Virus record (IMG/VR): IMGVR_UViG_3300042332_000965
Span: 1 to 64,000 of that record
DNA length: 64,000 nt
Source of the DNA: a virus
Reading direction: 5' to 3' (one strand)
Shown: in pieces, positions 6,893 through 51,612 of the stretch
Position numbering within the stretch: position 1 is the stretch's first letter
How the letters are laid out: the number at the start of each line of letters is the position of its first letter
The notes under the pieces: generated by a model
The model's database searches: none
What the model saw: only the letters and a program-made list of their open reading frames with translations
Told to the model about the DNA's origin: nothing
Program-made: the position numbers and the translations under genes

Positions 6893-8261
6893 TGCTAAGG
6901 TACGGACAGAAACACTCAAAGGTAAGAACTACCTCGTAGCCCCAGTCTCGATGATTAAAGAGGGCGTTTGGCGAGGGATCGGCGGAACTCCGATCTTGTA
7001 TACCGAACGAGAGATTGAGAAGTCCGTAATCGCCTGGAATCACAAGCCTATCACCGTCGAGCATCCTACCAACAGCAGAGGCGAGCTTGTCTCAGGTGCT
7101 CTCACTGAGAGCCTGGAGAAGTTCTCGCTGGGTATCATCCTCAACGCAAAATATAACAGACGAACCAAGAAACTGCAAGCAGAAGCTTGGTTTGAGATCG
7201 ATCGATTCGATCAAGTCGAAGGTGGCGATAGGATCCACTCAGCGTTGCTAGCCAATCAAAAGCTGGAAGTCAGTACCGGTCTTTTCGTGGATGCTTCTAC
7301 GGTTACTGGAACCTTCGACAATAAGGAATATAGCATGACGGCTAGCAATTTCCGCCCTGACCACTTGGCGATCATACTGTCTGGCGAAGGTGCTTGCTCC
7401 GTTAAGGACGGAGCCGGACTGCTGGTCAACAAAGCCGAGATGACGACTGAGGAAGTGTCGGAAGATATTGACAAGTCCCGACCGGAACTGCTCCCCGTGT
7501 TCGTCGGTAACGCAATGGAACTCACGTCGCTTCTCGACAAGGTTCGCACTGCGATCTACCAAGCATACGAAGTTTACCGGGAAAATGAGCCTTCAACCTA
7601 CGCCTACATCGAAGCCATTTACCCCTCGTACTGCATCCTCTGCCTCCAGACTGGAGGAGAATCGACGCACTACAAGCAAAATTATGCAATTGAAAATGAT
7701 TCTGTTACATTATTAGAAGAACTGATACCAGTTACTCGCAAGGTAACGTACCAAGTGAACAATACGAAAGAGAACATGGAAAGAAAAGACCTAATTGCAA
7801 AGCTAGGCCAAGAACACTCCGAGTTCGTTGCCAACATGAGTGACGAGCAGTTCAAGGCTTTTGAGAAGGCTCTACAGCCTTCCCAAGCTGCTCCCGCCGC
7901 ACCAGCGGCTCCCGTAGCAGAGAAAATTGTATGTAACTCCGTTGAGGAATTACTATCTACTTACGCTTCTGATAGCGTGAAGAACATCGTACAGGATGCT
8001 GTAGCTCTTGCGGTTAAGACCCGTGAAGACCTTATCGAGAAGATCGTTGCTAATAGCAAGGATGTCTGGACTAAGGAAGAACTCGCATCTTTCCAAACCG
8101 CACATTTGACCAAGCTTGCAGCTTCCGTTCAGGCTCCCGCTTCGGCGAAGTCGAACCCAGCCGTTTATGCAGGTGAGGCATTCGTAGGCAACCAAGGTAA
8201 GGTTGACACCTCCAAGGTAGCTCCTCCCCTTCCTATCCCTACTTTCTCTGTTGAGGCTTAA
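6861..8261 (+). CDS. DUF2213-type prohead protease with scaffold-like C-terminus
   Basis: 466 residues. The N-terminal half has the DUF2213/U35-like pattern: 'YLVAPVSMIKEGVW', 'WNHKPITVEHPTN', 'LEVSTGLFVD' and 'NFRPDHLAIILSGEGACSVKDGAGL'. These putative serine-histidine proteases mature the prohead. After about residue 190 comes a domain of unknown role, then 'MERKDLIAKLGQEHSEFVANMSDEQFKAFEKAL' and Ala/Pro-rich and helical segments typical of scaffolding cores. Two internal ATGs (for example at the MERKDL segment) could give a separate scaffold, as in many phages. Confidence 0.8.
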   Translation: MMEKLIANLASAKVRTETLKGKNYLVAPVSMIKEGVWRGIGGTPILYTEREIEKSVIAWNHKPITVEHPTNSRGELVSGALTESLEKFSLGIILNAKYNRRTKKLQAEAWFEIDRFDQVEGGDRIHSALLANQKLEVSTGLFVDASTVTGTFDNKEYSMTASNFRPDHLAIILSGEGACSVKDGAGLLVNKAEMTTEEVSEDIDKSRPELLPVFVGNAMELTSLLDKVRTAIYQAYEVYRENEPSTYAYIEAIYPSYCILCLQTGGESTHYKQNYAIENDSVTLLEELIPVTRKVTYQVNNTKENMERKDLIAKLGQEHSEFVANMSDEQFKAFEKALQPSQAAPAAPAAPVAEKIVCNSVEELLSTYASDSVKNIVQDAVALAVKTREDLIEKIVANSKDVWTKEELASFQTAHLTKLAASVQAPASAKSNPAVYAGEAFVGNQGKVDTSKVAPPLPIPTFSVEA

Positions 8262-48838: not shown

Positions 48839-49138
48839 CTACCATCCTCCCTTAAATTTGATTTGGTCTTTAATCTGCTCTAATGCCGCAGTAGCCACGC
48901 CTAGTAGCGGCTCCGGCTTTGGGATCCGATTGTCCCTATTGTTTAGTCTATCCCAGTTACAAGTAATCTGGAATTTGTGGCGTGTGGTTTTACGAGACAG
49001 CTCGCTGTAGGACTCAAGTACAACACCGAGAGATTCGCACCAATAGAAAACGTATCGTTTTCCCTTGAGCCCTAGATTTGTTTGAGTCCAGACGATATTG
49101 CCGTGCTCGTCTGTGTATACTTCTGCTCTGAGTCCCAT
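48839..49138 (-). CDS. Hypothetical protein
   Basis: 99 residues, beta-alpha mix with 'VYTDEHGNIVWTQTNLGLKGKRYVFYWCESLGVVLESYSEL'. Preceded by GGAGGT. Unknown. It lies between the primase leader and an unusual tRNA-Tyr. Confidence 0.65.
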   Translation of the reverse strand: MGLRAEVYTDEHGNIVWTQTNLGLKGKRYVFYWCESLGVVLESYSELSRKTTRHKFQITCNWDRLNNRDNRIPKPEPLLGVATAALEQIKDQIKFKGGW

Positions 49139-49162
49139 AGCTACCTCCAGTTAGAAATTGAG

Positions 49163-49280
49163 TGGGCAGCGGCAAGATTCGAACTTGCATACGACAGCAG
49201 GCCCTGTTTACAGCAGAACCCGCTCTCGACACCGGTGATTTTATCTACCGGGGAGGCGATCCCTATCCCCCTCGCTGCCC
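49163..49280 (-). tRNA. tRNA-Tyr (GTA) with an insert of about 30 nt
   Basis: Minus strand, 118 nt. Acceptor GGGCAGC/GCTGCCC, T-arm GCAAG-TTCGAAT-CTTGC and anticodon loop CTGTAAA (identical to bacterial tRNA-Tyr) are all canonical. D-arm GGGG...CCCC is followed by an extra hairpin (CCGGT...ACCGG) and the anticodon stem is lengthened to about 10 bp (GCGGGTTCTG with CAGGGCCTGC). This is about 30 nt longer than normal tRNA-Tyr. It could be an intron-bearing, processed or altered-function tRNA. Confidence 0.7.
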
Positions 49281-49360
49281 AGACTTCCTGCTTACCTACT
49301 ACAGGGCTACGAGTCTCACGTAGCGGTCTATCCGTTAAGGCGTTTGCATCCCTCAGATCG

Positions 49361-49909
49361 TTACGCACGCTCGCTGGTGCGTCTGATATGCTTCACATAG
49401 TCTACAAACTTATAGTGCTCCGCATGGAACCTACGGGTTCGTGGGGAGCCGTGTGTGGCCCGCTGTACGAACCACTCATAAACAAAGTCAACCCCAGGCG
49501 GCATGTGCCGGTATACCGGCGTGCCTTCTACTGATTTGAGGTAAGCTCTGTAGCTGTCCAGGGCAGCTTGCACATACTCAGGGTCGATTCCTCGACCATC
49601 CGATTCGATGCGTTCCCATAGGTCGCGTGCCGCGATACTTACGGGTAGCTTGCAGGCTACAGGGTCTTGCAGTGCTTCCGCGAGGAAGCCCTTGAAGTTG
49701 CGAAGCAGCACTGCGGAGCCGGGAACCGAGCCTGCTCGGTGAGCGGCTAGCCAGTTAGTAACGCACTCGATCTCTTGTTCTGTAAAACCCCGCTGTAGGA
49801 GATCCCGAAAGCACGCAACTTTAGTTTCACTATTCGTTAGTTGGCGATACTTGGTAAATAACCTAACAGCGGGGCTTGATTCTTTGTCTTGGCGGAGTTC
49901 TTGGAACAT
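49361..49909 (-). CDS. Hypothetical protein, possibly DNA-associated
   Basis: 182 residues, start MFQELRQDKESSPA. Helical, with 'LFTKYRQLTNSETKVACFRDLLQRGFTEQEIECVTNWL' and 'YEWFVQRATHGSPRTRRFHAEHYKFVDYV'. The pattern is like helicase loaders or replisome organisers in helical content, but no family is recognised. Confidence 0.6.
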   Translation of the reverse strand: MFQELRQDKESSPAVRLFTKYRQLTNSETKVACFRDLLQRGFTEQEIECVTNWLAAHRAGSVPGSAVLLRNFKGFLAEALQDPVACKLPVSIAARDLWERIESDGRGIDPEYVQAALDSYRAYLKSVEGTPVYRHMPPGVDFVYEWFVQRATHGSPRTRRFHAEHYKFVDYVKHIRRTSERA

Positions 49910-49910
49910 T

Positions 49911-50117
49911 TTACTTTGTGATTTTTTTAATGGATTCTTCGATCTCAATCATCTCTTGTAGGTTCTTGTAATTGGCACATGCAATATAAACCCAAACACT
50001 AGCGAGACAGAACCACAGCACCATATCAGTAGTTTTCTCCTGATTGACTGCAACGGCTAGGTGTGCTAGGACCGTCGCGACATTCACACCTACAAGAAAT
50101 TTCTGTAACTTAATCAT
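49911..50117 (-). CDS. Small two-helix membrane protein
   Basis: 68 residues: 'FLVGVNVATVLAHLAVAV' and 'MVLWFCLASVWVYIACAN' are membrane helices, followed by an acidic-basic tail. Coupled to the HNH gene by a 4-bp overlap. Role unknown; a holin is possible but unsupported. Confidence 0.6.
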   Translation of the reverse strand: MIKLQKFLVGVNVATVLAHLAVAVNQEKTTDMVLWFCLASVWVYIACANYKNLQEMIEIEESIKKITK

Positions 50118-50821
50118 TGCGTTTTGCTCTTTCGGGGATAGTCTTTTCCTTTAGGGTGGCGTATCGCCTCCTCTAGAGTCATGCCTGAATCTAGGCGATC
50201 TCGTAGAGTCTCTGGGTGTATATTACATTCTTTTGCCCATGCTGACAATACTTGTGTCCTACCTAATCCGGTAATATTTCTAGAATTCCGCTTATTTCTG
50301 CTTTGTTCCTCACTAGTCGCCCAGCGACAATTATCTGGAGTATAGTTGCCATTTACATCCACACGATCGATGCTATCGCATTCCAAGGGCCTGCGGCCCA
50401 TGTCCTCCAAGAAATTGTTGTAGCCATTCGTAGGGTCATTCCATCGATCACAGATACGGATTCCACGCCCTCCATAGTCTGGATACGATCGATTCTTTGT
50501 GTTGTAGCAACGGCTTTTTATGTTTACCCAAGTCCTATACTCGGTACTTTCAACATCCCCATGCCTAGTGAATGTGTCTATTAGCCAGTCCGTTAGTAGG
50601 CAGCCGCAGCTTTTAGTTCTAGCTGCCTCTAGATTAGACGTAGCATACACCCCTACACTACCACACATACAAACGCAAACTTGGTGGGCTCTGTGGCTTC
50701 CGTCGCTGTTCCGGAGCATGAACTTAGGTCCAATGGTCGTTAGACGACCGAAGGTCTCGGGAACAAAATTTTCGTAGTTCTTGTCAATTCGGATACCATT
50801 GTGTACAATGTACTTAGCCAT
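50114..50821 (-). CDS. HNH endonuclease (AP2/homing-type)
   Basis: 235 residues, start MAKYIVHNGIRIDKNYENF (longer frame rejected because a terminator lies at 50850-50884). 'WVNIKSRCYNTKNRSYPDYGGRGIRICDRW' and 'GRRPLECDSIDRVDVNGNYTPDNCRWAT' are the classical phage HNH/AP2 pattern. A C-terminal 'LSAWAKECNIHPETLRDRL' helix-turn-helix completes a homing endonuclease. Confidence 0.85.
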   Translation of the reverse strand: MAKYIVHNGIRIDKNYENFVPETFGRLTTIGPKFMLRNSDGSHRAHQVCVCMCGSVGVYATSNLEAARTKSCGCLLTDWLIDTFTRHGDVESTEYRTWVNIKSRCYNTKNRSYPDYGGRGIRICDRWNDPTNGYNNFLEDMGRRPLECDSIDRVDVNGNYTPDNCRWATSEEQSRNKRNSRNITGLGRTQVLSAWAKECNIHPETLRDRLDSGMTLEEAIRHPKGKDYPRKSKTQ

Positions 50822-50849
50822 GATGACTCCTATTAGTCGTTGGTGGTTA

Positions 50850-50884
50850 GAAAAGCCGAGTGGTTCCAGCCGCTCGGCTTTTCG
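50850..50884. terminator. Bidirectional intrinsic terminator
   Basis: AAAAGCCGAG at 50851-50860 pairs with CTCGGCTTTT at 50873-50882. U-runs on both strands. It separates the protease gene from the HNH gene. Confidence 0.85.
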
Positions 50885-50922
50885 CATTGTAGCATAAACT
50901 AACAGTTTGTGCAAATATCGGG

Positions 50923-51612
50923 TCACTTCTGCGTTTTAGCCCATTCTAATATCTCTTTAAGTCTGCGTGCCGAGCCCGCTCTAGCGGGCCAAGTCACGCT
51001 TCGCTCTACGTCTTCTATGGGTGTATACCAAGCAGAACCCCCAGAAACCACCCCAACGATTTCATCGTTTAGCAGCACAGGTCCGCCGCTTTGACCTGGA
51101 GAAACAACCGAGTCGCTGTGGATATAGTTCTCGTAAGCGAAGCTGACAATCCCAGAAGTTTTTAGCCAAGCTCCGTTGGCAAAGCCGAAAAAGTTAATCT
51201 GTAGTCCACTTGGTCGATACGAGAATCCTACCTTATCTACCTTGCTGTTCCGTTCCACGGAACCTAAGGGCATAGGTTTGAACTGCCTCTTGGTGCTGCA
51301 AAGCAGCACAGCTAGATCGGCTTTCTTGTCTACGGCTACTACCTTGGCATTCGGCATGTCCTTCACCGTATCGTTCTCCAGCGTGTAGACGCTGCCCTGA
51401 AACATATTGCCGCTGTCGGTTAAGACGACGTGGGCAGCGGTTCCAAGGTACGTCTTGTCGCCTACCTGTTCGAGCACGAAAGCCGTGCCCTGTGCTTGCT
51501 CCGGCGTTCGGATACGGAACACTCCGTTCTTGTCCGGATCGATCCCGAAAACGAGATTCCCCAGTAGGACTATGAAAAGTATAAATGCAGCTACAACGAA
51601 TAGTCGGTTCAT
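50923..51612 (-). CDS. Trypsin-like serine protease with signal anchor
   Basis: 229 residues, start MNRLFVVAAFILFIVLLGNLVFG (signal peptide or anchor). Catalytic triad in order: 'LGTAAHVVLT', 'DKKADLAVLLCS', 'VVSPGQSGGPVLLNDEIVGVVSG'. DegP-like chymotrypsin fold without PDZ. Exported, so it may act on envelope proteins. ATG overlaps the next gene's end. Confidence 0.85.
   Translation of the reverse strand: MNRLFVVAAFILFIVLLGNLVFGIDPDKNGVFRIRTPEQAQGTAFVLEQVGDKTYLGTAAHVVLTDSGNMFQGSVYTLENDTVKDMPNAKVVAVDKKADLAVLLCSTKRQFKPMPLGSVERNSKVDKVGFSYRPSGLQINFFGFANGAWLKTSGIVSFAYENYIHSDSVVSPGQSGGPVLLNDEIVGVVSGGSAWYTPIEDVERSVTWPARAGSARRLKEILEWAKTQK

What the first reader, a model, noticed from the sequence alone, without database searches (positions are those of the whole stretch)
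49163..49280. tRNA-Tyr with an extra hairpin and a 10-bp anticodon stem
All identity parts of tRNA-Tyr(GTA) are intact, yet about 30 extra nt sit between the D-arm and the anticodon arm and the anticodon stem is doubled in length. This could be an intron, an unusual processing substrate or a tRNA-like regulator. It would be missed or mis-scored by standard finders.
Basis: seen in the sequence. Interest (0 to 1): 0.7.

Follow-up and report, generated by a model that had tools for sequence, protein, structure and literature searches.

The report
Phage tRNA-Tyr with a structured insert
A bacterial virus carries a tyrosine tRNA gene whose front half holds about 35 extra bases that fold into a hairpin and double the length of the anticodon stem; it is a rare oddity seen here in one genome only, probably a retained, tRNA-like RNA rather than a spliced gene.

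Summary
On the minus strand, window 49280-49163 encodes a tRNA-Tyr(GUA)-like RNA of 118 nt. It has an 8-bp acceptor stem, G1-C72, A73, a consensus T-arm and a consensus anticodon loop CUGUAAA. About 35 extra nt on the 5' side form a separate hairpin and lengthen the anticodon stem to 11 continuous pairs. The fold is well beyond chance (z about -4.7 to -4.9), though the insert taken alone is only moderately so (10 of 1000 shuffles). Default ARAGORN and Rfam miss it; ARAGORN in intron mode calls tRNA-Tyr with a 35-nt insert, against no calls in 40 shuffled windows. The genome is a 66-kb tailed-phage record. In two sister phages the same intergenic slot holds ordinary tRNA genes. The element itself has no detectable relative. 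No splicing signal, group I intron or RNA ligase was found. Phage tRNAs with unexplained inserts, one a tRNA-Tyr(GTA), are already reported from Lak megaphages. My best reading is a phage tRNA-Tyr variant that keeps its insert and serves as a stand-in or decoy for host tRNA-Tyr; decay is a serious rival. The phage also encodes Ro60 and a YrlA-type Y RNA elsewhere.

The parts
49163..49280 (-). tRNA-Tyr(GUA)-like RNA, 118 nt, five-way junction fold
   Evidence: fold z -4.73; ARAGORN intron mode call, none in shuffles
49273..49280 (-). acceptor stem 5' strand GGGCAGCG
   Evidence: pairs 8/8 with 49171-49164; pair probability at least 0.95
49252..49272 (-). D-arm-like hairpin (GGGG or GGG / CCCC or CCU), loop holds GGG; no U8/A14
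   Evidence: pair probabilities 0.26-0.47 only; ARAGORN D-arm ggg/cct
49214..49248 (-). 35-nt insert as delimited by ARAGORN (exact borders ambiguous)
49232..49251 (-). extra hairpin CCGGUAGAUAAAAUCACCGG
   Evidence: pair probabilities 0.73-1.0
49192..49228 (-). extended anticodon arm: 5 inner + 6 further continuous pairs, a G.G mismatch, 3 more pairs
49207..49213 (-). anticodon loop CUGUAAA, anticodon GUA at 49211-49209
   Evidence: sequence
49172..49188 (-). T-arm GCAAG-UUCGAAU-CUUGC
   Evidence: sequence; pair probability 0.97
49163..49171 (-). acceptor stem 3' strand CGCUGCCC and discriminator A73, followed by CT as after the other tRNA genes of this phage group
49281..49360 (-). spacer with tRNA-5'-half-like motifs (UUAACGGAUAGA, 5-bp/7-nt hairpin), no T-arm; probably a decayed tRNA fragment
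   Evidence: sequence; fold of 49282-49360 not beyond chance, z -0.42

Best explanation
It is a phage tRNA-Tyr(GUA) variant in the phage's tRNA slot. SHOWN: the 3' half (anticodon loop, a 13-nt class II variable region, T-arm, acceptor strand, A73) has canonical tRNA-Tyr sequence and spacing; the 5' half between acceptor and anticodon stem is about 35 nt too long and folds with the variable region into an 11-bp anticodon helix plus a side hairpin. INFERRED: the RNA is cut out of the polycistronic transcript by the ordinary tRNA end-processing enzymes, which read acceptor and T-arm, and it keeps the insert. The 10-11-bp anticodon helix is about as long as the normal stack of anticodon stem on D-stem, so an L shape with the usual anticodon-to-acceptor distance could be kept although the D-domain is rebuilt. 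It would then act as a phage-supplied stand-in for tRNA-Tyr: most likely a decoy or cleavage-resistant substitute in conflicts over host tRNA-Tyr (as normal phage tRNA-Tyr counters retron-Eco7), less likely an ordinary decoder of Tyr codons.
For: The acceptor, T and extended anticodon stems are fully paired, and both diagnostic loops match the tRNA-Tyr consensus. z is -4.7 to -4.9. ARAGORN in intron mode finds it, with 0 calls in 40 shuffles. The same slot in sister phages carries tRNA-Leu, Glu and Trp (L008) or Trp (L013). The 3' flank A|CT is shared with window tRNA-Glu and sister tRNA-Leu and Glu. Precedent for phage tRNA-Tyr as an anti-defence factor: PMC11555353. No splicing machinery or intron signature found.
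Against: There is no homologue, so no covariation and no proof of selection. D-arm, U8 and A14 are not canonical. The insert's own structure is only moderately beyond chance (10 of 1000). No convincing promoter was found by consensus scan (1 weak site, no more than in shuffles), and there are no expression data. The neighbouring 80 nt look like a decayed tRNA. The decoy role rests on analogy only.
Confidence: 0.4

Rival explanations
1. Decaying tRNA gene: a former tRNA-Tyr in a turnover-prone phage tRNA slot, whose 5' half was replaced by recombination; the RNA has no function.
For: The slot is variable between sisters. The upstream 80 nt look like a tRNA remnant with no special fold. Another degenerate cloverleaf lies next to tRNA-Trp in L008 and L013. 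Non-canonical D-domain. No homologue.
Against: 8/8 acceptor, 5/5 T and 11 continuous anticodon-arm pairs with consensus loops; z -4.7 to -4.9. Decay would be expected to hit these first or equally.
Confidence: 0.28
2. Intron-containing tRNA-Tyr: a 35-nt intron is removed to give an 84-nt class II tRNA-Tyr, as proposed for Lak megaphage tRNAs.
For: ARAGORN places a 35-nt insert at 32/33 and recovers an 84-nt class II length tRNA. Lak phages have tRNAs with unexplained introns, one in tRNA-Tyr(GTA) (PMC6784885); over-long tRNAs were seen in Lak-A2 and Lak-B6 here.
Against: No group I match, no bulge-helix-bulge in the fold, no RNA ligase, RtcB or splicing endonuclease among 40 proteins scanned. 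The excised form would have a C.A mismatch in the anticodon stem, whereas the unexcised inner stem pairs fully. The insert stabilises the fold.
Confidence: 0.18
3. Ordinary decoding tRNA: aminoacylated with Tyr and used in translation with the insert retained.
For: G1-C72, A73, G34-U35-A36, U33 and T-loop all present; the 10-11-bp helix length matches the normal D/anticodon stack (inference).
Against: No free class II variable arm, which bacterial TyrRS reads (established knowledge); no U8-A14; large side hairpin at the tRNA core.
Confidence: 0.1
4. A second Y RNA or Ro60 ligand of this Ro60-encoding phage.
For: The phage encodes a TROVE/Ro60 protein and a YrlA-type Y RNA; Y RNAs mimic tRNAs.
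Against: No YrlA match in this region even at E 10. The arm order is that of a tRNA (acceptor ends free), not the permuted order of YrlA. It lies 11 kb from the Ro60 gene.
Confidence: 0.04

Closest known systems
Lak megaphage tRNAs with unexplained introns (PMC6784885)
   Same: Phage tRNA genes, including a tRNA-Tyr(GTA), interrupted by short inserts with no known splicing mechanism.
   Different: Lak tRNAs were predicted by intron-mode finders; no element in the two Lak genomes looked at here was seen to share this one's architecture (informal look at six over-long hits). Here the insert lies 5' of the anticodon stem and pairs with the variable region, in a 66-kb phage. Lak genomes are 540-552 kb.
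Phage tRNA-Tyr that counters retron-Eco7 (SP15, T5; PMC11555353)
   Same: Phage-encoded tRNA-Tyr(GUA) in a phage tRNA region.
   Different: Those are treated as ordinary tRNA-Tyr; this one has a rebuilt 5' half and is untested. The published work reports loss of protection when stem-loops or anticodon are changed.
YrlA bacterial Y RNA (RF02553)
   Same: tRNA-mimicking RNA of about 120 nt; a YrlA-like RNA is encoded elsewhere in this phage (61814-61935).
   Different: YrlA is permuted (acceptor closed by a loop, ends in the Ro60-binding stem); the element is not and does not match the family.
Natural tRNAs with non-canonical structure (tRNA-Sec, allo-tRNA, tRNA-Pyl, mt-tRNA; PMC7609411)
   Same: Altered arm lengths; an acceptor plus T of 13 bp also occurs in tRNA-Sec (established knowledge).
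   Different: None of the passages read of that review describes an extra hairpin between D- and anticodon arms or an 11-bp anticodon stem.

Membership tests
tRNA (RF00005) | score over the family cut-off | tested here: not met
   no match even at E 10 in 49000-49500
tRNA-Tyr (bacterial) | anticodon GUA in a 7-nt loop with U33 | tested here: met
   CUGUAAA
tRNA-Tyr (bacterial) | G1-C72 and A73 | tested here: met
   sequence, in the 8-bp acceptor frame
tRNA-Tyr (bacterial) | T-arm 5 bp with loop UUCRANN | tested here: met
   GCAAG-UUCGAAU-CUUGC
tRNA-Tyr (bacterial) | canonical D-arm with U8, A14, G18G19 | tested here: not met
   no U8 or A14; GG present; D-stem weak
tRNA-Tyr (bacterial) | long class II variable arm forming its own hairpin | tested here: not met
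   13-nt variable region pairs with the insert instead
tRNA-Tyr (bacterial) | aminoacylation and decoding | not testable with these tools
   needs biochemistry
Intron-containing tRNA (archaeal/eukaryal type) | bulge-helix-bulge at exon-intron borders | tested here: not met
   no such motif in the MFE structure
Group I intron in tRNA | match to group I intron models, catalytic core of over 200 nt | tested here: not met
   35-nt insert; no Rfam match
YrlA Y RNA (RF02553) | family match, permuted order, Ro60-binding stem | tested here: not met
   no match in this region; the real YrlA is at 61814-61935

The most novel reading that the evidence does not exclude
A phage-evolved class of tRNA-shaped five-way-junction RNAs, with tRNA ends and T-arm but a rebuilt D-domain and a long anticodon helix, encoded in phage tRNA slots and serving as tRNA decoys or nuclease-resistant substitutes. 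A 121-nt element in the same slot of sister L008 (4362-4482; z -3.9; closing stem, four hairpins, a last 5-bp/7-nt hairpin abutting the closing stem) would be a second, sequence-unrelated example.
Probability: 0.15. Interest if true: 0.65.

Novelty: new variant of a known kind. Interest (0 to 1): 0.38.

Why it matters
If expressed with the insert retained, it would show that a tRNA can lose its normal D-domain, gain a 35-nt structured insert and still pass as tRNA-Tyr to some part of the cell. It would give a concrete test object for the open question of what the interrupted tRNAs of phages are for: splicing, decoys, or resistance to tRNA-cutting defence systems.

Tried and rejected
Homologues: blastn of the element in phages (only T-arm fragments and short chance matches); covariance model R1 over 14 sources (the other 13 loci gave only weak hits, E 0.08 or worse, to other sequences) and over 8 whole virus records (only itself); exact anticodon-arm pattern in viral contigs (0); exact 3'-end patterns in bacterial genomes (0 for 24 nt; 1 hit for 20 nt that is not a called tRNA). 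So there is no sign that the 3' end copies a host tRNA (attachment-site idea). The insert is not repeated in the window or in relatives. Single-protein searches with the neighbouring 195-aa gene and the helicase found nothing; paired alignments with L008 did. Rfam weak matches at the locus (groES, snoZ178) are far below gathering. A 123-nt 'tRNA' in Ro60 phage L004 seemed an analogue but spans two tandem Y RNAs. A cis-regulator of the downstream gene is disfavoured, as the matching DNA in L013 lies elsewhere.

Full report
WHAT IS THERE. The element lies on the minus strand, 49280 to 49163. It sits in a 222-nt gap between two minus-strand open frames (49948-49361 and 49138-48839), and ends 24 nt before the start codon of the next gene. 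Read 5' to 3', it has an acceptor strand GGGCAGCG, a weak D-arm-like hairpin, an extra hairpin CCGGUAGAUAAAAUCACCGG, a long anticodon arm with loop CUGUAAA, a T-arm GCAAG-UUCGAAU-CUUGC, the second acceptor strand CGCUGCCC, and A73. The minimum free energy is -59.8 kcal/mol, z -4.73, none of 200 shuffles as good (repeat z -4.93).

HOW FAR BEYOND CHANCE. The whole fold is clearly non-random, but much of that is ordinary tRNA. To test the insert, only the segment between the acceptor 5' strand and the inner anticodon stem was shuffled: 10 of 1000 fold as well (z -2.98), and 24 of 1000 extend the anticodon stem as far. The insert is therefore moderately structured. All pairs of the extended anticodon stem have probability 0.96 or more; the D-arm-like pairs have 0.26-0.47.

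WHAT TRNA FINDERS SAY. ARAGORN by default and Rfam find only tRNA-Glu at 60289-60362. ARAGORN allowed to place introns reports tRNA-Tyr(gta) at 49162-49280 with a 35-nt insert and 84 nt without it, the length of a class II tRNA-Tyr; 40 composition-shuffled windows give no call. From anticodon loop to T-loop the spacing equals that of a normal class II tRNA-Tyr (my count against E. coli tRNA-Tyr as remembered). So the 3' half is canonical, and the 5' half is where the change lies. The insert's last part (CGA.AGCGGG) pairs with the 13-nt variable region (CCUGCU.UCG), which makes the long anticodon stem.

GENOMIC SETTING. The record is a virus of 66,395 bases with terminase, portal, tape measure, DNA polymerase A, DnaB-like helicase, primase and RecA-like genes. 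Relatives with 62-63% identical helicase are L008/L011 and L013. In L008 the same slot between the 195-aa gene and the primase gene holds tRNA-Leu(UAG), tRNA-Glu(UUC) and tRNA-Trp(CCA); in L013 it holds tRNA-Trp; the more distant L012 has no tRNA called. In the sequences read, each of these tRNA genes, and the element, is followed after the discriminator by CT. The element therefore sits in a tRNA slot of this phage group, and its 3' end looks like its neighbours'.

NO RELATIVES. The covariance model R1 finds no homologue in 14 loci or 8 whole virus records; DNA searches find none. Covariation cannot be tested. This is the main weakness of any functional claim.

MECHANISM. Splicing is disfavoured: no group I match, no bulge-helix-bulge, no RNA ligase, RtcB or splicing endonuclease in 40 scanned proteins (smaller frames were not scanned), and excision as ARAGORN places it would leave a C.A mismatch in the anticodon stem, while the unexcised inner stem pairs fully. 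I think the insert is retained. The 10-11-bp anticodon helix is about as long as the usual stack of anticodon stem on D-stem (inference from established tRNA structure), so the RNA could keep the L shape while its D-domain is rebuilt. Phage tRNA-Tyr is known to rescue phages from retron-Eco7, which depletes host tRNA-Tyr (PMC11555353). A stand-in or decoy in such a conflict is my preferred, unproven role. Decay in a turnover-prone slot is the strongest rival: the 80 nt upstream look like a tRNA remnant without special folding.

KNOWN NEIGHBOURS. [quoted passage not shown] Over-long tRNA matches were indeed found in Lak-A2 and Lak-B6; I did not establish their exact insert positions. Earlier, all phage group I introns were reported in protein genes (PMC3984707). 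The element is thus a new variant of a known kind, not a new category.

THE Ro60 LINK, CHECKED AND SET ASIDE. The phage encodes a TROVE/Ro60 protein (60482-61771), and just upstream a YrlA-type Y RNA (61814-61935, 38.7 bits, below the curated cut-off but E 2e-7). Y RNAs mimic tRNAs and have been suggested to compete for anticodon nucleases (PMC7790460). The element does not match YrlA and is not permuted. No TROVE match was found in the records of the sister phages.

Noticed in passing
61814-61935 (-) and 60482-61771 (-): YrlA-type Y RNA (38.7 bits, cut-off 69) directly upstream of a TROVE/Ro60 gene in a 66-kb phage; permuted tRNA-like domain complete.
   Followed up: partly
L004:7640-7970: Three tandem Y-RNA-like copies (GGCGCAGAA.AG.G.TACTTA repeats, read by eye) upstream of a phage TROVE gene; the Rfam tRNA match at 7792-7914 spans two of them and is spurious.
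   Followed up: partly
L008:4362-4482: 121-nt structured RNA between tRNA-Leu and tRNA-Glu (z -3.9): long closing stem, four hairpins, the last 5 bp/7 nt and abutting the closing stem, but without tRNA loop sequences.
   Followed up: partly
L008:4800-4880 and L013:7490-7570: 81-nt cloverleaf-like element directly 3' of tRNA-Trp in both sister phages (z -2.7 and -2.1), outer stem GGGGC/GCCCC; perhaps a decayed tRNA or a processing element.
   Followed up: partly
49281-49360 (-): tRNA 5'-half-like motifs (GCCUUAACGGAUAGACCGC, hairpin CUACG-UGAGACU-CGUAG) without T-arm, upstream of the Tyr element.
   Followed up: partly
50114-50926 (-): HNH endonuclease gene whose part 50899-50715 matches three places in L013 at 73-86% DNA identity, unlike its neighbours; looks mobile.
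   Followed up: no
L022, L023, L024 (Lak-B6, Lak-A2): Over-long tRNA matches of 101-159 nt in Lak phages; ARAGORN gives a 15-87-nt insert for several, one of which holds a T-arm-like hairpin of its own.
   Followed up: partly
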